A stretch of DNA of 64,000 bases, taken from the NCBI RefSeq assembly GCF_042477335.2, contig NC_091262.1, positions 67,876,001 through 67,940,000 of the forward strand, given 5' to 3'. Numbering within the stretch: the stretch's first letter is position 1; each line of letters starts with the position of its first letter. The notes under the pieces were generated by a model that saw only the letters and a list, made by a program, of their open reading frames with translations, was not told the origin of the DNA and made no database searches. Shown piece by piece: positions 14,982 through 35,345 of the stretch. The DNA is from Ovis canadensis (lineage: Eukaryota; Chordata; Mammalia; Artiodactyla; Bovidae). The translations under genes were made by a program, and so were the position numbers.

Positions 14982-15295
14982 AATAGAAACAGAGTCATAG
15001 ATACGGAAAACAAACAGGTAGTTGCCAGAGGGCAGGGTATTGAGGTGATGAGAGAAATACATGAGGGAGATTAACAGGTACAAACTTCTAGCTATAAAAT
15101 AAATGAATCACAGATATGAAATGCACAGTGTGAGATATATAGTCAATAATTATATTACATCTTTGTATGGTGATAGATGGTAACTAGACTTACTGTGATG
15201 ATCATTTTGCAATGTATAGAAAAATTGAGTCACTATGGTGTATACCAAGAATGAATATAGTTTTGCAGGTCAATTATAACTCAAAGCCACCCAAC
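14982..15295 (+). mobile_element. L1 3' end (older subfamily)
   Basis: 3' UTR type 'aacaggtagttgccagagg ... atgaatcacagatatgaaatgcac ... gtataccaagaatg', ending in a (AC)n run near 15300. Noncoding. Confidence 0.75.
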
Positions 15296-15299
15296 CAAA

Positions 15300-15960
15300 C
15301 ACACACACAAACTGATTGCTAGAAACAGAGATCAGATTTCTGGTTATAAGACATGGAATGTGGGGGAAGGGAGAATTAATAAAGGTGGTCAAAAGATATG
15401 AAAGATACAAACTAAGGATATAAAGTACATGATATAATTAATACTGTAGCATATTATTTATGACAGTAAATCCTAAGAGTTCTCACCACAAGGAATTTTT
15501 TTTCATTTTTTTAAAATTTTATATCTATATGAGGTGATTGATGTTCACTAAACTTATTGCAGTAATCATTTCGTGATGTATCTAAGTCAAATCACCATGC
15601 TGTATACTTTAAACTTACATAGTGCTGTATGTCTGGAGAAGGCAATGGCACCCCACTCCAGTACTCTTGCTTGGAAAATCCCATGGATGGAGGAGCCTGG
15701 TAGGCTGCAGTCCATGGGGTCGCTAAGAGTCGGACACGACTGAGCAACTTCACTTTCACTTTTCACTTTCATGCATTGGAGAAGGAAATGGCAACCCACT
15801 CCAGTGTTCTTGCCTGGAGAATCCCAGGGACGGGGGAGCCTGGTGGGCTGCCGTCTATGGGGTCACACAGAATCGGACACGACTGAAGCAACTTAGCAGC
15901 AGCAGCAGTGCTATATGTCAGTTAAATCTCAATAAAATTGGAATGTAAAAAACTAAATAG
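15300..15960 (+). mobile_element. L1 3' end split by Bov-A2
   Basis: Second L1 3' UTR ('ggtggtcaaaagatatgaaag' ... 'atgctgtatactttaaacttacat' ... 'gtcagttaaatctcaataaa'). It resumes after the SINE at 15907. Confidence 0.8.
15634..15906 (+). mobile_element. Bov-A2 dimeric SINE
   Basis: Full dimer from 'ggagaaggcaatggcacccc' to the (AGC)n tail. Target duplication AGTGCTGTATGTC at 15621..15633, repeated as AGTGCTATATGTC (one mismatch) at 15907..15919. Confidence 0.97.
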
Positions 15961-16409
15961 GAATATGCCCTCAAGGCTATCTCAGTATGTTTTAATTTGT
16001 GATTATACACTTTTTAAAATACTTCATCCACTGTTACCTTCATTGAAGTGAAGATTTTTATCAAGGAAGTGTCCTTATCCAGATGGCGAAATGTGCAAGA
16101 TAGAAACGAAAACAAAAAAGAAATAATGTCTCAGAAGGAACCAAATAGAAAGGGAATAATAGACATGATGAATTTTAAGGAGAAAGAAAACACTCCATAA
16201 CTTTAGATGTGTGACCAAAACGCAAGAAACTTAAAGTTGATGAGAGAACTGCAGAAAAGAAAATGCCTTTTCCACTACAAGCACAGGTGGAAAAAAGAAA
16301 AAGAAAAAAATGACTGTGGAGAATATTTTACCCTTGTCAACAGAATTTAGTGTGAAAAGGATATTGTAATTCTTTCAATTATAAAATTACTTCATTTCAA
16401 AATAGATAT
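15961..16409. other. Single-copy-looking DNA 3' of FSCB
   Basis: Between the repeat cluster and the FSCB polyadenylation signals. No element recognised; A-rich on the plus strand. Confidence 0.5.
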
Positions 16410-16470
16410 TTTATTCCACTTTAGATTTGAATAAAAATAGTAGAGTAATTTTAAATCACTAGTTTTTATT
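16410..16470 (-). terminator. FSCB polyadenylation signals (two AATAAA)
   Basis: On the gene strand AATAAA occurs at 16465..16470 and again at 16410..16415, about 143 and 198 bp beyond the FSCB stop codon. Either would give a short 3' UTR. Which one is used needs cDNA ends. Confidence 0.6.
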
Positions 16471-16612
16471 GCTCACTTTCCAAACTATACTCCATGTCTT
16501 AGGATTTCCATTCACTTCCTTCTTCACAAAGCTCTCTCCAAATACCTTCAAATATACCTACCATTTTCTTACGTATGTACTTCCCAGAACCTCCTGGTTT
16601 CTGATTGTTAAC

Positions 16613-19198
16613 TTAGTTACGATCAGACCACAGCTGAGGAGGAGGCCCCTGTTCCAGTTCTATATGTATCACACCCTGTATTTCAAAAGAAACCCCTTCA
16701 TTCTTGGTATCAGATGAGTCTTTAGGAACAGTATCCCGTTCTAAAGGCTCTTCAGATTTTGGCTTATCATCCAAAGTCCCTGATTCTAATTTTACTACCA
16801 GGACGTCTGCTTCCTTTGGAGCCTGATCTACTGGAGACACATTCTCTACAAGAGCCTCATCTGCAGGGGTTTGCTCAAATGGTGGAAGCAGAACCTCAAC
16901 AGAGATTTCTTCTAAAGAGATTGGTGTAATAAAGGGCTCTCCAGTGAGTGAAGGCTGTTTCTCAACAGAGACCATTTCTGAAGTAGTTTCTTCAGCTGAT
17001 GGAGGCTGCAGTTCAGCAGGGGCCTCTTCTGCAGGAGCCTCCTCAGTGGGTAGAGATTGAACTTCTTCTGTGGCCTCTTCTGCAGAGGCCTCATCAGCTG
17101 GTAAAGACTGAACTTCTGGAGCTGCTTCTGCAGGGTCCTCCTCAGCTGGTGGAGACTGAACCTCTGGGGGCTCTCCTGCAGGGGCCTCTTCAGCTGGTGG
17201 AGGCTCAGGTTCAGCTGGGGCCTCTTCTGCAGGGGCCTCCTCAGCTGGTAGGGAATGAAGTCCTTGACCCTCTTCTTCAGGGCCCTTGTCAACTGGTGGA
17301 GACTGAACTTCTGGGGCCTCTTCTTCAGGGGCCTTGTCAGCTGCTGGAGACTGAAATCCTAGGCCCTCTTCTGCAGAGGCCTCATCAGTTGGTAGAGACT
17401 GAACTTCTGAGGCCTCTTCAGTGGCCTCAGCTGGTGGAGGCTGAACTTCCAGGGGCTCTTCTGCAGGGGCCTGCCCAGCTGGTACAAACTGAACTTCTGG
17501 GGCCTCTTTTTCAGGGGCCTCCTCAGCTGGTGGAGACTGAACTTCTGGAGCTGCTTCTTCAGGGGCCTCTTCAGCTGGTGGAGACTGAACCTCTGGGGGC
17601 TCTTCTGCAGGGGCCTCCTCAGCTGGTGGAGACTGAGCCTCTGGGGCCTCTCCTACAGGGGCCTCCTCAGCTGGTGGAGACTGAACTTCTGGAGCTGCTT
17701 CTTCAGGGGCTTCTTCAGCTGATGGAGACTGAACCTCTGGGGACTCTCCTGCAGGGGCCTCTTCAGCTGGTGGAGGCTCAGCTTCAGCTGGGGCCTCTCC
17801 TACAGGGGCCTCCTCAGCTGGTGGAGACTGAACTTCTGGAGCTACTTCTTCGGGGGCCTCTTCAGCTGGTGGAGATTGAACCTCTGTGGGCTCTCCTGCA
17901 GGGGACTCCTCAGCTGGTGGAGACTGAACCTCTGGGGCCTCTTCTACAGGGGCCTCCTCAGCTGGTGGAGACTCAGTGTCAGCTGGGGCCTCTTCTGCAG
18001 GGGACTCCACAGCTGGTGAAAGTTGAAGTTCTGGGGCCTCATGTATAGGAGCCTCTTCAGCTGAAGGAGGCTGAACTTCAGTAAGAGGCTCTTTTAAAAG
18101 AGTCTGTTCTGATGAGGTGGCCTCTACTTTAGCATGGGCCTCATATCCAGCAGTGTCTTCCACTGGGGAAGGCTGTATTTCAACAGGAGCCTCTTCAGCA
18201 GGAGGCTCTTCTGAAAGAGGCTCTTCATCTGGCATAGGCTCTACTTTAGCAGGAGCCTCATCTCCAGGAGCCTCTTCAGTTGGGGAAGGCTGTACTTCAA
18301 GAGGAGCCTCTTCAGCTGGTGGAGGCTGAACTTCCACAGGAAGCTCTTCTTCGGTAATCTCATCTAGCGGAAGTTGTTCTTCAGCAGAGATCTCTTCTGC
18401 AGCAGGAGGCTGTACTTCAACTGGAACATCTTTCTCATCTTCTAAAGGTACAGGAGACTCTTTTTTGGTTGGTGAAATAGATAATGTTCTGCTAATACTT
18501 TGCTGCCTAATTTCTTCATTGCTACTTGTTGTGGGTTGAAATTCAGGATGTTCACTGACAAAAATATTCCCTGAAGATTTGTGCTTCTGTGCACCTTCCT
18601 TTGACTTTGAAAAAGAATTAGCCGGCCATCCAATAACCACTACTTCTGATTCACTGAAGTATGTCTGCTGTTCCTTGTCTACTTTCTCTTTTTGAGGAAA
18701 GTTCATCATTGTCCAGTCTCCAGTACAAGTAGTCTGCTGAGATCTGTCTGTTTTGACTTGAACAGAGTATCTGCTTGGTGGAACTTCTACTTCCTGAACA
18801 CTCTCTGGAAATTCAGGACCTACTTCAACAGCAGCTGGCTTTTCCTCAGGTACCACTGCTTCACAAACTAACTTGATTTCTTCTTTTTTCTCTTCTGCAA
18901 TAGCTTCTGTCTGCACAGACTTATCAGCCATATCCTGTACATGCTTTCTCTTTATCCAAGTTTGCTGAAGTTGAGAAGATACTCTATGATATTCATAGTT
19001 TAATTTGCTTCCAGGAATATTACCAATACTAAAGGCAGCTTTGGGGCAAGATGATTGTGGTATAGACAATTGTTTCTTTTTCTCTGTCACTTCAGTCTGC
19101 TGGGATTTATCTACCATGGGCTGGCTAGGTCGTCTTCTCTTTCGAATTTCTTGCCTGCCTGCTGAGATAGACTGTTCAGATTCATCCTTTTCTTCCAT
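16613..19198 (-). CDS. FSCB: Fibrous sheath CABYR-binding protein, 861 aa
   Basis: Recognised by its N-terminus ('GRQEIRKRRRPSQPMVDKSQQTE', 'SIGNIPGSK', 'QQTWIKRK') and proline/glutamate repeats. In the family, FSCB is a testis-specific, calcium-binding, PKA-phosphorylated protein of the sperm tail fibrous sheath. It binds CABYR late in sheath assembly. Layout: residues 1-250 are non-repetitive, with a canonical PKA site R22-R23-P-S25 and four D-K/R-x-x-Q-T motifs (30-35, 92-97, 151-156, 174-179). Residues about 259-745 are repetitive, most regularly 393-735 with a 16-residue unit PPAEEAPxExPEVQSP-like. Residues 746-861 form an acidic tail. No signal peptide or membrane segment is seen. The frame is uninterrupted and single-exon. 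The start is the first Met after an in-frame TGA at 19217..19219, with G at -3 and G at +4. Human FSCB is, from memory, about 825 residues; repeat number likely explains the difference. Confidence 0.95.
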   Translation of the reverse strand: MEEKDESEQSISAGRQEIRKRRRPSQPMVDKSQQTEVTEKKKQLSIPQSSCPKAAFSIGNIPGSKLNYEYHRVSSQLQQTWIKRKHVQDMADKSVQTEAIAEEKKEEIKLVCEAVVPEEKPAAVEVGPEFPESVQEVEVPPSRYSVQVKTDRSQQTTCTGDWTMMNFPQKEKVDKEQQTYFSESEVVVIGWPANSFSKSKEGAQKHKSSGNIFVSEHPEFQPTTSSNEEIRQQSISRTLSISPTKKESPVPLEDEKDVPVEVQPPAAEEISAEEQLPLDEITEEELPVEVQPPPAEEAPLEVQPSPTEEAPGDEAPAKVEPMPDEEPLSEEPPAEEAPVEIQPSPVEDTAGYEAHAKVEATSSEQTLLKEPLTEVQPPSAEEAPIHEAPELQLSPAVESPAEEAPADTESPPAEEAPVEEAPEVQSPPAEESPAGEPTEVQSPPAEEAPEEVAPEVQSPPAEEAPVGEAPAEAEPPPAEEAPAGESPEVQSPSAEEAPEEAAPEVQSPPAEEAPVGEAPEAQSPPAEEAPAEEPPEVQSPPAEEAPEEAAPEVQSPPAEEAPEKEAPEVQFVPAGQAPAEEPLEVQPPPAEATEEASEVQSLPTDEASAEEGLGFQSPAADKAPEEEAPEVQSPPVDKGPEEEGQGLHSLPAEEAPAEEAPAEPEPPPAEEAPAGEPPEVQSPPAEEDPAEAAPEVQSLPADEASAEEATEEVQSLPTEEAPAEEAPAELQPPSAEETTSEMVSVEKQPSLTGEPFITPISLEEISVEVLLPPFEQTPADEALVENVSPVDQAPKEADVLVVKLESGTLDDKPKSEEPLERDTVPKDSSDTKNEGVSFEIQGVIHIELEQGPPPQLWSDRN
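16994..18022 (-). repeat. 48-bp coding tandem array in FSCB
   Basis: Encodes residues about 393-735 as roughly 21 imperfect 16-residue units (PPAEEAP...PEVQS). Some units are shortened (14 residues near 588-601) or lengthened (17 residues). The DNA repeats too, with 'cctcagctggtggagactga' recurring every 48 bp, so unit gain and loss by slippage or unequal exchange is expected. Looser copies extend out to residue 259. Confidence 0.93.
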
Positions 19199-19500
19199 TT
19201 CTAAGACTGGTAGATTTCAAACTTATTAACCTTCAAGTAAATTAACCATCAGGAATGACAAATGTACCAGATACTTAAGCCTTTGCCTTCCTCATTAAGT
19301 GCTCTTCTGTTGAGCTACCTCAGGAAAAAGTTGGTTCATAAATTATTACATTCTGTACTACACTCCTGTTGGATCCCACCTCATTTAGTAAGCATCTTTC
19401 CTGTTTAATCTCTGGTATGACTAAATATAACTTCTAGAAGTTTTACTAAGAGTCTATGACATCACAGCCAATGGTCACTGCAAGGTTCCATCAGTGATAT
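19199..19500 (-). promoter_or_regulatory. FSCB 5' UTR / proximal promoter region
   Basis: On the gene strand this holds a CRE-like TGATGTCA (19457..19464) and, 3 bp away, an inverted CCAAT box (19468..19472), about 260 bp upstream of the ATG. CRE-like sites bound by CREM are typical of haploid germ-cell promoters, which fits FSCB expression. The transcription start itself cannot be read. No convincing TATA box is seen, only AT-rich 'taataatttatg' at about 19338-19349. The section 19219..19425 is duplicated in inverse orientation at 21699..21926. Confidence 0.5.
19219..19425 (-). repeat. Inverted duplication, arm 1 (FSCB 5' flank)
   Basis: Its reverse complement aligns along its whole length with 21699..21926. 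Shared blocks include 'aaatgaggtgggatccaaca', 'tacagaatgtaataatttat' and 'ggtacatttgtcattcctga'. By eye identity is about 88-90 % outside one insertion. Confidence 0.9.
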
Positions 19501-20295
19501 ATCCAGAACCTTTTAACCTGGTAAACAACTCACAGATGCTGGCCACAAGTGAGAAATCTACTACCTGAAACAAGTTGAAAACAAGCATTTGTCTAGCAGA
19601 GGAATATGAAGTAAACTCTGGTAATGCTGCTTTGTTTTAGTTGGAGTTGATGCTTTTGAACTTTTAATTCTGTTTGCTTCATCCTACTGTTAAAGACAGA
19701 TATAATGCAGAATTCAGAATTCTGCAGTGTACTTGCAATTGTTTGAGAAAACAACTGGTAAAATATTCGTGGCAAAGTTCTATCAATATGTATTCATATA
19801 ATTTGAGGGAAAGTTAATATTGTTTGAAAAACTTGAGTTCTGAGATCCATACCCATGTAAGTTCATTATCTCCTTAGTATTCAGTAACCACAGGAGCCTA
19901 CTATTAATGTTTATATACATGCATGACATGTTTGCCTTCTCAAATAACTTGAGATAGTCTAATTTTCAATTATCTCAGAAAATAGTTCCACCCAAAGTTT
20001 GACAAATAAAATAATGTTGAGTCTAAATACATGTCAAGTGGGAAAAAAATGCATTTTTTTTGATGCAACCAGTATATACGCTGCTGAATAACTACATGGG
20101 AATGAATTCCCATCGAAGATGAAATCATTTAATTGAAGCTTTGAAAAAGAGAAATCCCAGTTAAGCATACTGTAAATGGAATTGTAATAGATTTAAAATA
20201 TAAATAAACTTTAACATACATCACACAAAAATTTTACAAGAAAGATGAATTGGTCAAAAGATGTGCAAAATCCTATTCCTTTAGTCTAAGAAATG
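19501..20295. other. Unassigned DNA upstream of FSCB
   Basis: No repeat recognised. It could contain distal promoter sequence. A 60-codon minus frame at 19593..19775 has no recognisable content. Confidence 0.5.
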
Positions 20296-21576
20296 TTCAG
20301 TTCAGTTGCTCAGTCATGTCCAACTCTTTGCGACCCCATGAATCACAGCACACCAGGCCTCCCTGTCCATCACCAACTCCCGGAGTTCACTCAGACTCAC
20401 GTCCACTGAGTCAGTGATGCCATCCAGCCATCTCATTCTCTGTCGTCCCCTTCTCCTCCTGCCCCCAATCCCTCCCAGCATCAGAGTCTTTTCCAATGAG
20501 TCAACTCTTTGCATGAGGTGGACAAAGTACTGGAATTTCAGCTTTAGCATCATTCCTTCCAAAGAACACCCAGGACTAGGCTCCTTTAAGATGGACTGGT
20601 TGGATTTCTTTGCAGTCCAAGGGACTCTCAAGAGTCTTCTCCAACACCACAGTTCAAAAGCATCCATTCTTCGGCTCTCAGCTTTCTTCACAGACCAACG
20701 CTCACATCCATACATGAACACTGGAAAAACCATAACCTTGACTAGACGGACCTTTGTTGGCAAAGTAATGTCTCTGCTTTTGAATATGCTATCTAGGTTG
20801 GTCATAACTTTTCTTCCAAGGAGTAAGCATCTTTTAATTTCATGGCTGCAGTCACCATCTGCAGTGATTTTGGAGCCCCCAAAAATAAAGTCGGACACTG
20901 TTTCCACTGTTTCCCCATCTATTTCCCATAAAGTGAAGGGAGCAGATGCCATGATCTTCGTTTTCTGAATGTTGAGCTTTAAGCCAACTTTTTCACTCTC
21001 TACTTTCACTTTCATCAAGAGACTTTTTAGTTCCTCTTCACTTTCTGCCATAAGGGTGGTGTCATCTGCATATCTGAGGTTATTGATATTTCTCCTGGCT
21101 ATCTTGATTCCAGCTTGTGTTTCTTCCAGCCCAGCGTTTCTCATGATGTACTCTGCATATAAGTTAAATAAGCAGGGTGACAATATACAGCCTTGACGTA
21201 CTCCTTTTCCTATTTGGAACCAGTGTGTTGTTCCATTGTCCAGTTCTAACTGTTCCTTCCTGACCTGCATACAGATTTCTCAAGAGGCAGGTCAGGTGGT
21301 CTGGTATTCCCATCTCTTTCAGAATTTTCCACAGTTTCTTGTGATCCACACAGTCAAAGGCTTTGGCATAGTCAATAAAGCAGAAATAGATCTCGTTTTG
21401 GAAGTCTCTTGCTTTTTCCATGATCCAGCGGATGTTGGCAATTTGATCTCTGGTTCGTCTGCCTTTTCTAAAACCAGCTTGAACATCTGGAAGTTCACAG
21501 TTCACATATTGCTGAAGCCTGGCTTGGAGAATTTTGAGCATTACTTTACTAGCATGTGAGATAAATGCAATTGTTA
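20296..21576 (-). mobile_element. BovB LINE with nearly open RT C-terminal half
   Basis: 3' end at 20296, 5' truncation near 21576 ('acaattgcatttatctcac' on the element strand). Frame 20314..21270 (318 codons) is open from just before the RT palm through the post-RT domain and keeps the catalytic Y-A-D-D at residues 67-70. The preceding RT part lies in another frame (21164..21643), so one frameshift separates them near 21240. It sits between the arms of the inverted duplication. Confidence 0.95.
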
Positions 21577-21698
21577 ATGAAAAGCAAATAGACTTTAAAA
21601 AAATGTAGTCACAAGAGACAATGTAATAAACATACCTAAACAATTATTATGACTTCATTAACCTAAGAATATGTTTAAATTCCTAATATTTTAAAAAG

Positions 21699-21926
21699 TT
21701 TAGTCATAACCAGAGATTAACACGGAAGGAGGAGGTGGGATACTAAATGAGGTTGGACTCTAAATGAGGTGGGATCCAACAGGAGTGCAGTACAGAATGT
21801 AATAATTTATGAACTAATTTTTTCTGAAGTAGCTCAGTAGAAGAACACTTAATAAGGAAAGCAAAGGCTTAAGTAGCTGGTACATTTGTCATTCCTGATG
21901 ATTAATTACTTGAAGGTTAATAAGTT
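21699..21926 (+). repeat. Inverted duplication, arm 2
   Basis: Inverted copy of the FSCB 5' flank (arm 1). It carries an extra stretch near 21731-21765 in which 'ctaaatgaggt' plus following bases is itself tandemly duplicated, making this arm about 20 bp longer. No FSCB coding sequence follows it. Confidence 0.9.
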
Positions 21927-22819
21927 TTTAATCCTAGCCAAATAAATAAGCACCTTCCACACTCTTTGATCCAGCCCCTAAAGCACCCTCTCTCTAAACA
22001 AGGAACAGTGAATACTTGTTGGGTGTAATTGGGAGGAATGCAATTAGAAACCACACTGCCTGTCCTACATCTCAACTTGCTTTGCTTTCATTTTTGTCTT
22101 TTTTGTTCCGCTACATTTTATCTTTCTAAAATTTAACAAAATGAAGTAAAACCAAAGTCACTTTACAGAAGTATTGATGTAGGTTTTAATCTGACCTGCT
22201 GAAAACTAGATTGTTAATCAGCCTGTTTGTGATCTGGTTTTCCACTCAATTGCATCTGTCAAACACTGAATGTGTATTTTGCAATCAAGTTTCTGACATT
22301 TTATGTGGTATCTTCAAAGCCTGTTCTGGGCCAACTCATAAAAAGAAATAAATGTCAAAACCAACACTGCCTTAATTGAGTTAATATAACATTACAAGTA
22401 CTGAATTAATTTTGCTGCTTCAACTTAAATAAGATTTTGCCAAGATTTCCATAGATGTAAACCAACTTCTAATTATTTGATTTTTTTGTTTTCCCCTCTA
22501 AGTAATAATGAAGAACTTGATCTTTCTTAATTGCACACCAAACTATCATAGTAAACAGCCTGTTGCTACTAGCTTATTCATAGAAGCAAATTAGCATTCC
22601 TAGTCAATCAATCTACTTGCTATTCCAAATAGAATTATGAATGATTTCATAAAACAATTTCTCATCATATTTTTTAAGATCCACAAATGATCCTTTTGTT
22701 CTACTAATCTAACCAACAATTACATTATTGAATATCTGGTCAATTTTAGGTTTGGTGTTCTAACTTTTGTTTAGGAAATCTCACATGATCAGGTCTCTCT
22801 CCTTGACTTGGTTCATATC
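21927..22819. other. Unassigned single-copy-looking DNA
   Basis: AT-rich, without recognisable repeats or frames. Confidence 0.5.
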
Positions 22820-23222
22820 TGTTGCAGGTTCAATTACGTATCCCCTGAAAGATAAGTTGAAGTCCCAACCTGTAGTATCTCTGAATGGGACCTTATTTGG
22901 AAATAAGGTATTTGCAAATGTAATCAGGGTAAGATGGAATCCTAAAAAGAAGAAAATTTGGGCAAAAATATACACAGAGAAAATGGCCATATGAGATGGA
23001 AGCAAAAATTAGAGTTATATTGCTACAAGGCAAGGAACACCTAGGTCTACCAGAAGTTGGAAGAGGCAATGAAAGATCTTCTTTTTGAGGCTTCAGAGGG
23101 GGCATAATCCTGCCAACACCTTGACTTAGGGGCTTTAAGCCTCTAAAACTAGAGTACATTCCTGTTGTTTTAACCTTGTTTTTGATACTTTCTTATGGCA
23201 GCCCTAGGAAAACAATAGAACA
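22820..23222 (-). mobile_element. MLT1-like MaLR LTR
   Basis: Reverse complement of a MaLR LTR. Diagnostic blocks are 'gttgaagtcccaacctgtagt', 'gaccttatttggaaataagg', 'caaggaacacctaggtctacc' and 'ttatggcagccctagga'. Old, noncoding; no internal region is seen. Confidence 0.85.
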
Positions 23223-24132
23223 TTTCATAACCCCATGTTTCTGACTCCCACTTGACATGATATACTTCTGACTCTCTCAATCTCTAATACTAGTTTCCTT
23301 ATTTCTGATTCAGGCTTGACATTTAGTTTCATACAATATTTGACCAATTTCTGCAATTATAAAACCAGAGGGATTTGCTGAAAGACCTCTACCTGATGAC
23401 TTGTATTTAATTTTACCAAAAACAAATTTGTTGAGTAGCATGTAATTTCATTTATAATTATGATGACTTTGAAAGATATGATTTGGAGATAGCAGAGATA
23501 TTTCAAATCAATATAGACCAAACATCTGAACTGTGGTCTACACTGCTTTGTTCTAAACTGAACAGACCAAATAAGATGAAGTCTGAAATATGTCCATTGG
23601 ATATGGTAACTATAAGGAAATTGGTAATTTGAGTAAGAGCAATTTCAGTGGAAGGGTGGGAAACAAGTGATAAAACAGTAGGACTTCTGTGAATTAAGTT
23701 TTTTAAATTAAATTGCAGTTAAAAAATAAGTATAAAATACCACATGGACAAAGAGCTATACTTAAAACACTAAAAAGTTTTAGAAAATCAATATACAAAT
23801 AACACAATAGAAAAAAAAATGAAAGAACATGAATAGAAGATGTATAGAGGAAAAATAACTGACCAATAAGCCTATAAAAGAGATCAACTTCAATTCTAAA
23901 ATTAAGATTAAAAAAATATCAATGTAAAACTAGCAAAAATTATTTTAAAGATAATATACCCTCCCCTCAAAAATGAAAATATTATTAAATGGATGGTCTC
24001 CTACATTACTGACAGGAGTTTGAATTGATACAATCCTTACAGAGAATTTGAAAGTAAATATGAAAAATTTCTAAAACATGCATACCATTTGCCAATAATT
24101 CTGTTTCCAAGAAACTTAAGTTTTAGAAATAA
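23223..24132. other. Unassigned AT-rich DNA, possibly decayed L1
   Basis: The part from about 23700 onward (plus-strand A-rich, 'atgaaaatattattaaatgg', 'gtttgaattgatacaatcc') resembles decayed L1 but I cannot align it. Confidence 0.4.
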
Positions 24133-24290
24133 TTATTTCCTCAAGAAATATTTACTGAATACCTATATATTCCAGGAGCAATTTCTACATGTTGAGAAAA
24201 CAACAGAATACAAAAGGACATTGTTTCCTGTCCTTATGAATCTCACAGTCTAGTGGAAGAAACTAAATAGTAAAAAAAAAAAAAGTGAAA
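24133..24290 (-). mobile_element. L2 LINE 3' end relic
   Basis: Reverse-complement L2 3' end: 'aagaaatatttactgaatacc', 'gagaaaacaacagaatac', 'cttatgaatctcacagtctag'. Highly diverged. Confidence 0.6.
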
Positions 24291-25415
24291 ATAGTGTTAA
24301 TTAGTGAACAGGGAATATACTGTACCTAGAGTAATAGGACCAGAATGGGTTTATAGTAGAGAGCACCAAATTGAGAAAGAATCCAAAAGAGAAACAGTAA
24401 GAAGAAAGTGACATGTTCTCGGAATTATGAGAAATCTGCTGTGGCAAGAGGAAAGGCAAAGCAAAAAAGAAGGCATGTTTTAGATGTGCTTGAAGAAGTA
24501 GATAGCAGCCTGATGGTGCACTGATTTAAGACTCTATAAGGTATTGTTATTTTGGATATAACTATTGTAAATATTTAGGCACCCAATATCAGAGCACCTA
24601 AATTTAAAAAGCAGATATAAAGAGACCTGAAGGGATGAGTAGACAACAATGCAATAATAATAGGTGACTTGATTATATCACTTTCATTAAAGAGTAGATA
24701 ATTCAGATAGAAAATGAATAAGAAAACACTTAACTTGAATTACACTTTTAACAGACATGTATAAACATCCCTTCCCATAACAGCAAACTAAACATTCTCT
24801 TCAAGCATACTTTGAACATTCTCTAAGACAGATTATGTTATCTAATAAAAAAGTCTTTAAAATTTTATTAAAACTGAAATGATATCAAGCATCTTTTCTA
24901 ACCACAATAGTATTAAATTAGAAATCAAGTACAAGAAGATAACAGCAAAATTCATAAATATATGGAAGTTAAATATCTCACTATTGAGGCAAAACTATGG
25001 GTCAAAGAGGAAATCAAAAAGGAACTTAAGAATATCTTGAGACAAATAAAAATATAAATACAACATACCAAAATAAATGGATGCAACAAAAGCAGTTCCA
25101 AAAGGGAAATTTATACCAATAAACACCTACATCAAAAAAGGAAGATCTCAAACAACCTAACTTTATACCTCAACAACTAGTAAAAGAATAATAAAAGAAA
25201 AGATAGTAAAAGAAAGAAAATAACAAAGAACAGAGCAGAAATAAATGAAATAGATTAGAAAGACAATAAAAAATAAAACATGATTTTTTTTAAAACATTA
25301 AAGTGATAAGCTTCTAGCTAGACTGAGAGAAGATTCAAATAAAATCTGAAATGGAAGAGGAGACATTACAGCTGATACATAGAAATACTAAGGATCATAA
25401 GAGAGAATTATAACT

Positions 25416-31210: not shown

Positions 31211-34200
31211 TCTGAATTGGAAAATTCAGACTTAAATTGAAGAAATTAGGGAAAACCACTAGACCATTCAGGTAGGACCTAAATCAAATCCCTTGCAGTT
31301 TTACACAGTGGAAGTGACAAATAGATGCAAGGGATTAGATCTGATACACAGAGAGCCTGAAGAACCATGGACAAAGGTTCGTGACACTGTGCAGGAGGCA
31401 GGGATCAAGACCATCCCCAAAAAAAAGAAATGCAAAAAGGCAAAATGGTTGCCTAAGGAAGCTGTACAAAGAGCTGAGAAAAGAAAAGAAGCAAAAGGCA
31501 AAGGAGAAAAGGAAAGATGTACCCATTTGAAAGCAGGGTACCCAAGAATTGCAAGGAAAGAAAAGAAAGCATTTCTCAGTGTTCAGTGCAAAGGAATAGA
31601 AGAAAACAACAGAATAGGAAAGACTAGAGATCTCTTCAAGAAAATTCGAGATACCAAGAGAACATTTCATGCAAAGATGGGTGCAATAAAGGACAGAAAT
31701 GACATGGGCCTAATATAAGCAGAAGATATTAAGAAGAAGTGACAAGAATACATAGAAGAACTATACTAAAAAGATCTTCATGACCCAGATAACCACGATG
31801 GTCTGATCATTCACCCAGAGCCAGACACCTTAGAATGCAAAGTCAAGCAGGCCTTAGGAAGCATCACTACAAACAAAGCTAGTGGAGGTGATGGAATTCC
31901 AGTTGAGTTATTTCAATCATGAAAGATGATGCAGTGAAAGTGCTGCAGTCAATATGCCACCAAAGTTGGAAAACTCAGCAGTGGCCACCGGACTGGAAAA
32001 GGTCAGTTTTCATTCCAATCCCAAAGAAAAGTAATGCCAAAGAATGTTGAAACTACCACACAATTGGACTCATCTCAGTTTGAGTGCAGTCGCTCAGTTG
32101 TGTTCAACTCTTTGTGACCCCATGGACTGCATCACAACAGGCCTCCTTGTACATCACCAACTCACAGAGCCTACTCAAACTCATGTTGATCCCATTGGTG
32201 ATACCATTCAACCATCTCATCCTCTGTTGTCTCATTCTCCACCCGCCTTCAATCTTTCCCAGCATCAGGGTCTTCTCCAATGAGTCAGTTCTTTCCATCA
32301 GGTCACCAAAGTATTGGAGTTTCAGCTTCAGCAGCAGTCCTTCCAATAAATATTCAGGACTGATTTCCCTTAGGATTAACTGGTTGGATCTCCCTCCAAT
32401 CCAAGTGACTCTCAAGAGTTTTCGGTGCTGGACTTTCTTTATAGTGCAAATCACACATCCATACATTACTACCGAGAAAACCATAGCTTTGACTAGAAAG
32501 AACTTTGTCAGCAAAGTAATATCTCTGCTTTTTAATGTGCTGTCTAGACTGGTCATAGTTTTTCTTCCAAGAAGCTAGCATCTTTTAGTTTCATGGCTGC
32601 AGTAACCATCTGCAGTAATTTGGTACCCCCCCTAAAAGAGTCTCTCACTGTTTCCATTGTCTCCCCATTTATTTCCTGTTAAGTGATGGGACTGTATCAT
32701 GATTTTAGTTTTCTGAATGTTGAGTTTTAAGCCAACTTTTTCACTCTCCTCTTTCACTTTCATCAAGAGGCTCTTTAGTTTTTCTTCATTTTCTACCATA
32801 AGGGTGGTGTATCTGAATATCTGACGTTATTGATAATTCTCCTGGCAATCTTGATTCCACCTTGTGCTTCATCCAGGCCAGCATTTCAGATTATGTACTC
32901 TGCATATAATTTAAATAAGCAGGGTGACAATATACTGCCTTGACAGACTCCTTTTCCTATTTGGAACCAGTCTGTTCTATGTCCAGTTCTAACCGTTGCT
33001 TCTTGACTTGCATACCGATTTCTCAGGAGGCAGGTCAGGTAGTCTGGTATTCCCATCTCTTGAAGAATTTTCCACAGTTTTTTGAGATCCACACAGTCAA
33101 AGGCTTTGGTATAATCAATATCAGAAATAGATATTTTTCTGGAACTCTGGCTTTTCCAATGATCCGACGGATGTTGGCAATTTGATCTCTGGTTCCTCTG
33201 CTTTTTCTAAAACCAGCTTGAACATCTGGAAGTTCACAGGTTACATACTGTTGAAGCCTGGCTTGGGAATTTGAGCATTGATTTCCTAGTGTGTGAGATG
33301 AGTGCAATTGTGCAGTAGTTTGAGCATTCTTTGGCATTGCCTTTCTTTGAGATTGGAATGAAAACTGACCTTTTCCAGTCCTGTGACCATTGCTGCATTT
33401 TCCAGATTTGGTGGCATATTGGATGCAGAGCTTTCACAGCATCTTTTACAATTTGAAATAGCTCAGCTGGAATTGCATCACTTCCACTACCTTTGTTTGT
33501 AGTGATGCTTCCTAAGGCCCACTTGACTTCGCTTTTCAGAATGTCTGGCTCTAGGTGAGTGATCACACCATTGTGATTATCTGGGTCATGAAGATCTTTT
33601 TGTATAGTTCTTCTGTGTATTCTTGCCACTTCTTAATATCTTCTGCTTCTGTTAGGTCCATACCATTTCTGTCCATTATTGAACCCATCTTTGCATGAAA
33701 TGTTCCCTTGGTATCTCTAATTTTCTTGAGGAGATCTCTAGTCTTTCCCATTCTTTTGTTTTCCTCTATTTCTTTGCATTGATCTCTGAGGAAAGCTTTC
33801 TTATTTCTCCTTGCTATTCTTTGGAACCCTGCATTCAAATGGGTATATCTTTCCTCTTCTCCTTTGCCTTTAGCTTTTCTTCTTTTCTCAGCTATTTGTA
33901 AGGCCTTGTCAGACAACCTTTTTGCATTTCTTTCTCTTGGGGATAGTCTTGATCACTGCCTCCTGTATAATGTCATGAACCTCCATCCATTGTTCTTCAG
34001 GCACTCTGTATATCAGATCTAATCCCTTGAATCTATTTGTCACTGCCACTGTATAATCATAAGGGATTTGACTTAGGTCATACCTGCTCACACAATAGTA
34101 AAGCAATGCTCAAAATTCCCCAAGCCAGGCTTCAACAATATGTAAACCGTGAAATTCCAGATGTTCAAGCTGGTTTTAGAAAAGGCAGAGGAACCAGAGA

Positions 34201-35345
34201 TCAAATTGCCAACATCCATTGGATTATCAAAAAAGCAAGAGAGTTCCATAAAAACATCTACTTCTACTTTATTGATTATGCCAAACACTCTGACTGTGTG
34301 GATCACAACAAACTGTGGAAAATTCTGAAAGAGATGGGAATACCAGACCACCTGACCTGCCTCCAAAGAAATCTGTATGTATGTCAAGAAGCAACAGTTA
34401 GAACGAACATGGAACAACAGACTGGCTCCAAATAGGGAAATGAATATGTCAAGGCTGTATATTGTCACCCTGTTTATTTAACTTATATGCAGAGTACATC
34501 ATGTGAAATGCCAGGCTGGATGAAGCAAAAGTTGGAATCAAGATTGCTGGGAGAAATATCAATAACCCCAGATACACAGATGACACCTTCTTATGGCAGA
34601 AAGCGAAGAACTAGAGAGCCTCGTGATGAAAGTGAAAGAGGAGAGTGAAAAAGCTGGCTTAAAACTCAACATTCAAAAAATGAAGATCATGGCATATGGT
34701 TCCATCACTTCATGGCAAACAGATGGGGAAACAATGGAAACAGTGAGAGGCTTTATTTTGGGAGGCTCCCAAATCACTGCAGATGGTGACTGCAGCCACG
34801 AAATTAAAAGACACTTGCTCCTTGAAAGAAAAGCTATGACCAACCTAGACAGCATATTAAAAAGCAGAGACATTATTTTGCCAACAAAGGTCCATCTAGT
34901 CAAAGCCATGGTTTTTCCAGTAGTCATGTGTGGATATGAGACATGGACTATAAAGAAAACTGAGCACTGAAGAATGGATTTTTTGAATTGTGGTGTTGGA
35001 CTAGACTCTTGAGAGTCCCTTGGATTGCAAGGAGATCCAACCAGTAAACCCTAAAGGAAATCAGTCCTGAATATTCACTGGAAGGACTGATGCTGATGTT
35101 GAAGCTCCAATATTTTGACCACCTGATAGGAAGAACTGACTCATCTGCAAAGACCCCGATGCTGGGAAAGATTGAAGGCGGGAGGAGAATGGGACAACAG
35201 AGGATAAGATAGTTGGATGGCATCATCGACTCAATGGACATGAGTTTGGGCAAGCTCCAGGAGCTGGTGATGGACAAGGAAGCCTGGCATGATGCAGTCC
35301 ATGGGGTCACAAAGAGTCAGACATGACTGAGCAACTGAACTAAAC
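31211..35345 (+). mobile_element. BovB LINE interrupted by an antisense BovB
   Basis: First half 31211..32077 ('gaattggaaaattcagactt' to 'attggactcatctca'); second half 34087..35345 ('ctcacacaatagtaaagcaatg' to 'gactgagcaactgaac'). The halves join in register across a 4-bp CTCA repeat (32074..32077 and 34087..34090). It covers the pre-RT, RT and post-RT regions, with decayed frames (31293..31718, 34037..34435, 34593..34970). The YADD box reads 'YTDD'-like at about 34574. Confidence 0.93.
32078..34086 (-). mobile_element. BovB LINE, antisense nested copy (about 2 kb)
   Basis: 3' end at about 32078, 5' end near 34086 ('aggtatgacctaagtcaaat' on the element strand). Carries the pre-RT domain (33563..33916 frame), RT fragments (33234..33629, 33035..33337, 32886..33092) and the post-RT domain, all broken by frameshifts. 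Confidence 0.94.

What the first reader, a model, noticed from the sequence alone, without database searches (positions are those of the whole stretch)
19219..21926. Inverted duplication of the FSCB 5' flank around a BovB
The reverse complement of 19219..19425 (starting 21 bp upstream of the FSCB ATG) aligns end to end with 21699..21926, at roughly 88-90 % identity by eye. The second arm carries no FSCB coding sequence, and a 1.28-kb BovB lies in the 2.3-kb loop. The arms could pair as DNA or, if transcribed, as RNA over the FSCB 5' UTR, and the copy could act as an opposite-facing promoter. I recognise neither arm as a known transposon, so a local inverted duplication is more likely than two copies of one repeat.
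Basis: seen in the sequence. Interest (0 to 1): 0.75.

Follow-up and report, generated by a model that had tools for sequence, protein, structure and literature searches.

The report
Small inverted copy of FSCB leader
A roughly 200-base piece just in front of the sperm gene FSCB was copied once, backwards, about 2.4 kb away in a sheep-type genome; it is a real two-copy local duplication, but it looks like an ordinary rearrangement scar and probably not a working switch.

Summary
Window 19213-19425 (minus strand, ending 15 bp before the FSCB ATG) and 21699-21933 (plus strand) are an inverted pair: 157 of 168 core bases identical, 89% over 226 columns, with a 17-bp unit repeated about three times in arm 2 only. 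Searches of the window's own 2.97-Gb genome (Ovis, inferred) with arm 1, arm 2 and a 26-mer find these two places only, so neither arm looks like an interspersed repeat. The loop BovB is one of many and shows no clear sign of involvement. The functional suggestions are not supported: the likely FSCB core promoter (CRE-like site beside a CCAAT box, TATA-like box) lies outside or at the edge of arm 1 and is absent from arm 2, so mainly 5' leader was copied, and arm 2 lies upstream of the expected transcript. Best reading: one templated insertion of template-switch type, perhaps 15-30 My old, now decaying. The junctions do not prove the mechanism. A new instance of a known kind, of low interest. 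No other ruminant genome could be read, so age and direction are inferred.

The parts
16613..19198 (-). FSCB coding sequence (861 aa), ATG at 19198
   Evidence: ORF; FSCB homologues across mammals, one Ovis protein 100% identical over 42% of the query; protein start conserved in musk deer, hippopotamus, pig, mouse and Tasmanian devil
19213..19425 (-). arm 1, FSCB 5' leader / proximal flank (probable parent copy)
19422..19429 (-). TATA-like TATATTTA at the outer edge of arm 1; its TATA part is not in arm 2
   Evidence: alignment; function inferred
19457..19472 (-). CRE-like TGATGTCA beside ATTGG (CCAAT box), outside arm 1, absent from arm 2
   Evidence: the only one of 5 CRE-like sites in the window with CCAAT/ATTGG within about 25 bp; function inferred
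19426..20288 (.). loop, left part, no other copy in 264 kb of held sequence
20289..21576 (-). 5'-truncated BovB (LINE) copy in the loop, ends set by eye (longest BLAST limits 20295-21574)
   Evidence: reverse transcriptase domain PF00078 in ORF 20314-21270; the name BovB and the strand of its ends are recalled/by eye
21577..21698 (.). loop, right part, no other copy in 264 kb of held sequence
21699..21933 (+). arm 2, inverted copy of arm 1
21732..21785 (+). ~17-bp unit repeated about three times, in arm 2 only
   Evidence: D1, spacing 17, 17

Best explanation
One germline rearrangement in the ruminant line copied about 207-213 bp of the FSCB 5' leader and inserted the copy in opposite orientation about 2.4 kb upstream (before or after the BovB arrived). 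The likeliest route is a replication or repair template switch (FoSTeS/MMBIR-like templated insertion). Shown: two copies found, inverted, about 92% identical in the core. Inferred: which copy is the parent (arm 1, because it abuts the gene), the mechanism, and the age. Since then arm 2 has drifted and its 17-bp unit has expanded in tandem. It most likely does nothing: the promoter-like elements were not copied and arm 2 is not in the expected FSCB transcript.
For: Exactly two genomic places for arm 1, for arm 2 plus flanks and for a 26-mer with up to 3 mismatches (0 in the reversed control). Both unique parts of the loop have no second copy in 264 kb. No shared flank word of 7 bp or more around arm 2 and no A-run after it on its sense side, so no sign of retrotransposition. 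Differences are 10 transitions to 1 transversion, as for old drift; in 8 of 10 transitions arm 2 has the A/T base, as expected if arm 2 is the decaying copy (weak, ten changes). Motifs likely to be the FSCB core promoter lie outside or at the edge of the copied piece.
Against: No junction signature proves a template switch: taken strictly, the junction homology is 0 and 2 bp, which 18% of 100,000 random placements equal or exceed. No outgroup sequence was available to show the empty site or the parent. Constraint on arm 2 was not tested. The genome tool skips very common words, scores only the best candidates and withholds some stretches, and a whole-genome positive control with BovB did not complete.
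Confidence: 0.8

Rival explanations
1. RNA-templated copy: the 5' part of an FSCB mRNA was reverse-transcribed and inserted, so that arm 2 is a fragmentary processed pseudogene of the 5' leader.
For: The copied piece begins near the expected start site (TATA-like box at 19422-19429) and ends 15 bp before the ATG, so it coincides roughly with a 5' leader; a BovB LINE copy lies next door.
Against: No A-run after arm 2, no shared 7-bp flank word (AAGTTT, 6 bp, is shared), no coding sequence; retrocopies are usually 5'-truncated and keep the 3' end (recalled). The transcription start is only predicted.
Confidence: 0.06
2. The arms are the terminal inverted repeats of one old transposon into which a BovB later inserted.
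For: Two inverted ends around a 2.3-kb interior.
Against: A transposon family should have other copies, and none were found in the genome. Arm 1 is the leader of a mammal-wide gene. The one loop ORF that I scanned is a reverse transcriptase; the other loop ORFs were not scanned for transposases.
Confidence: 0.03
3. Arm 2 acts: as a start site for a plus-strand testis RNA, or as a source of antisense RNA to the FSCB leader when read on the minus strand.
For: The arms would pair strongly as RNA (predicted duplex -287 kcal/mol for plus-strand copies, -298 for minus-strand copies). Divergent transcription is common at testis piRNA loci (26 of the 49 pachytene clusters in the passage form divergent pairs, PMC7782496, passages seen).
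Against: None of the promoter words scanned is in arm 2, A-MYB-type words included (none in arm 1 for A-MYB either); no Rfam match in 15000-25000 at gathering score; arm 2 lies outside the expected FSCB transcript; no expression data held.
Confidence: 0.06
4. Assembly artefact (mis-joined inverted repeat).
For: Inverted repeats are sometimes made in assembly (recalled).
Against: The arms differ at 11 of 168 core sites plus indels and a tandem expansion, far beyond sequencing error.
Confidence: 0.01

Closest known systems
Local templated insertions / dispersed inverted duplications by FoSTeS/MMBIR
   Same: Short segment copied once to a nearby site in inverted orientation. In one human series template-switch join-points showed microhomology in 15 of 57 and microhomeology in 19 of 57 (PMC6902434, passages seen).
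   Different: No clear junction microhomology here in strict register; this is an old, diverged copy and not a new variant.
ODIRA / inverted triplication-derived inverted copy number variants (PMC10766186, passages seen)
   Same: Inverted orientation with a spacer between arms.
   Different: That model starts from inverted triplications with long palindromic junctions; here one 0.2-kb piece is present in two copies.
Microinversions, template switch or MMBIR proposed (PMC8755829, abstract seen)
   Same: Strand-switching DNA synthesis near the source is one of the proposed routes.
   Different: Those are 17-33 nt segments inverted in place (the abstract holds that many are not easily explained by template switching); here the original is kept and about 207-213 bp is added elsewhere.

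Membership tests
Local inverted (dispersed) duplication | two homologous copies, opposite orientation, near each other | tested here: met
Local inverted (dispersed) duplication | no further copies in the genome | tested here: met
   (tool warns that very common words are skipped and only best candidates scored; no genome-wide positive control answered)
Local inverted (dispersed) duplication | empty site in an outgroup | not testable with these tools
   the genome tool says that this genome has no relatives here
FoSTeS/MMBIR templated insertion | microhomology at the junctions | tested here: inconclusive
   0 + 2 bp in strict register, chance 0.18; AAGTTT shared at both ends of arm 2 allows other readings
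Interspersed repeat / transposon | many genomic copies | tested here: not met
   by contrast the loop BovB gives 74 alignments in 264 kb
Processed retrocopy | poly(A) tail and target-site duplication | tested here: not met
   no shared flank word of 7 bp or more, no A-run after arm 2 in the printed flank; decay of old marks cannot be excluded
Duplicated promoter | core promoter elements present in the copy | tested here: not met
   CRE-like/CCAAT and TATA-like sites absent from arm 2; motif scan only, the true start site is unknown

The most novel reading that the evidence does not exclude
In ruminant testis, arm 2 is transcribed on the minus strand and makes RNA antisense to the FSCB 5' leader (or small RNAs from the duplex), a lineage-specific brake on FSCB created by one inverted duplication.
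Probability: 0.04. Interest if true: 0.5.

Novelty: new member of a known kind. Interest (0 to 1): 0.15.

Why it matters
By itself, little: it is a scar, roughly dated by divergence, beside a sperm gene that is dispensable for fertility in mice (PMC7401351, passages seen). It could serve as a clean two-copy marker to date a small templated insertion across ruminants. If arm 2 were transcribed in testis it would be a simple case of a new antisense control arising from one duplication.

Tried and rejected
Transposon with long terminal inverted repeats: disfavoured on copy number; only one loop ORF was scanned against Pfam. Retrocopy of the mRNA leader: no A-run, no flank word of 7 bp or more; kept as a minor rival. 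BovB-driven origin (twin priming or transduction): BovB-like sequence is dense, 122 bp of other DNA separates it from arm 2, and its 3' side shares no word of 7 bp or more with its own 5' side or with the left side of arm 2, and one 7-bp word with the right side of arm 2. NAHR-driven inversion of the loop: the longest perfect matches are 28, 26, 24 and 22 bp, short for efficient exchange (threshold recalled). Junction microhomology as proof of MMBIR: not better than chance in strict register. Structured RNA: no Rfam match in 15000-25000 at gathering score. Base rate: 20 stretches of 10 kb from the same genome plus the window; among self-pairs with E of 1e-8 or less, at least 60 columns, at least 70% identity, less than 10 kb apart and low-copy (median cover of 2 or less on both sides), the 20 stretches gave 4 direct pairs and 0 inverted, and this pair was the only one left in the window (two stretches held N runs; two loci that repeat the window were dropped before counting). 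That is too small a sample to call the event rare genome-wide. Other collections: a 28-bp word of the core had 0 matches in viral contigs and 0 in prokaryote genome contigs, as expected. Seven paper searches were answered: FSCB/fibrous sheath/CABYR, inverted duplication/template switching, FSCB/promoter/testis/intronless, CREM/spermatid promoters, FSCB/sheep/sperm, dispersed or templated duplication, template switch/ruminant/BovB/sheep genome. None of the titles listed is on this structure; these are listings (8 to 17 rows each), not full texts, and most rows were not opened.

Full report
What was checked. Alignment confirms it. The core 19219-19388 (minus strand) matches 21760-21927 (plus) at 157 of 168 bases, 10 transitions and 1 transversion, with 2 gap columns. 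BLAST extends the block to 19213 and 21933 at 91.5% over 176 columns, E = 3.3e-65. A longer gapped alignment covers 226 columns at 89.4%. Against 3000 random pairs of window segments the observed score of 146.6 compares with a median of 10.2 and a 99th percentile of 30; one random pair scored 148.2, presumably an interspersed-repeat pair (not checked).

Shape of the pair. The match stops 15 bp before the FSCB ATG on one side and near 19425 on the other. Arm 2 has about 23 extra bases: a ~17-bp unit is present about three times at 21732-21785 (D1), once in arm 1. In 8 of the 10 transitions arm 2 has A or T where arm 1 has G or C. That fits a free copy drifting toward AT, but with ten changes it is weak.

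What the gene is. The ORF at 16613-19198 (minus) is FSCB: of 73 proteins matched, 54 bear an FSCB name from a source, the nine weakest are unrelated bacterial or metagenome proteins, and one Ovis protein (570 aa, unnamed in function) is 100% identical over 42% of the query. Five homologues read out (musk deer, hippopotamus, mouse, pig, Tasmanian devil) share the start of the protein, so the ATG at 19198 is sound. The genome holding the window is 2.97 Gb in 42 contigs; Ovis is my inference.

Not a repeat. Arm 1 finds two places in the genome, both here. Arm 2 with flanks, at E up to 10, finds the same two. A 26-bp word of the core with up to three mismatches finds the same two, and its reversed control none. 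The tool warns that very common words are skipped and that only the best candidates are scored, and a genome-wide positive control with a BovB piece did not complete. As a local contrast, the BovB of the loop gives 74 alignments in 264 kb while the two other parts of the loop match only themselves.

How common such pairs are. In 20 stretches of 10 kb from the same genome, filtered in the same way (E of 1e-8 or less, at least 60 columns, at least 70% identity, less than 10 kb apart, low-copy), there were 4 direct pairs and 0 inverted pairs; in the window this was the only pair left. So such a pair is not an everyday sight at this scale, but 200 kb is too little to call it rare in 3 Gb. An earlier listing of the window alone, with a looser filter and no distance limit, also showed other low-copy pairs, among them two other inverted ones (15458-15633 / 52017-51847 and 31269-32077 / 34086-33294), the latter next to BovB copies.

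What was copied. A scan for promoter words found TGATGTCA next to ATTGG at 19457-19472 (FSCB sense), the only one of 5 CRE-like sites in the window with a CCAAT box within about 25 bp, and a TATA-like TATATTTA at 19422-19429. They lie outside and at the edge of arm 1, and arm 2 has neither. [quoted passage not shown] its main text does not mention FSCB). If these are the FSCB promoter, transcription starts near 19400 and the copied piece is nearly the 5' leader alone. The start site is inferred, not mapped.

How it arose. Two copies, inverted, close by, with single-copy sequence on the inner sides, point to one templated insertion by strand switching in replication or repair. Junction evidence is neutral: strict register gives 0 and 2 bp of homology, which 18% of 100,000 random placements equal or exceed, although AAGTTT occurs at both ends of arm 2. 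There is no A-run after arm 2 and no shared flank word of 7 bp or more, which argues against a retrocopy. Age: K2P distance is 0.070 for the core and 0.115 over 226 columns. With a recalled ruminant rate of about 2.2e-9 per site per year this is roughly 16 to 26 My, with wide error, so I expect it in bovids and perhaps all Pecora and not in pig or whale. This could not be tested.

What it does. Most likely nothing. The arms could pair as RNA (-287 kcal/mol for plus-strand copies), but both would have to be transcribed, and arm 2 lies upstream of the expected FSCB start. Only a minus-strand RNA through arm 2 would be antisense to the FSCB leader. No expression data are held. In mice FSCB loss leaves fertility normal (PMC7401351, passages seen). 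In cattle a SNP 126 kb from FSCB was associated with total motility of frozen-thawed sperm (PMC10812825, passages seen), which says nothing about this structure.

Verdict. Interest is low.

Noticed in passing
31269-32077 and 34086-33294: Another local inverted pair, 84.8% over 809 bp, beside BovB-like copies 32080-33311 and 34087-35345; probably 5' parts of two BovB copies in opposite orientation, one of them rearranged (interpretation inferred).
   Followed up: no
16999-18048 (+): A 349-aa open frame runs antisense through the proline/glutamate-rich repeat region of FSCB, presumably a by-product of the repeat's codon pattern.
   Followed up: no
15458-15633 and 52017-51847: A diverged (74%) inverted pair 36 kb apart, median cover 1 in the window's self-comparison; possibly an old interspersed repeat.
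   Followed up: no
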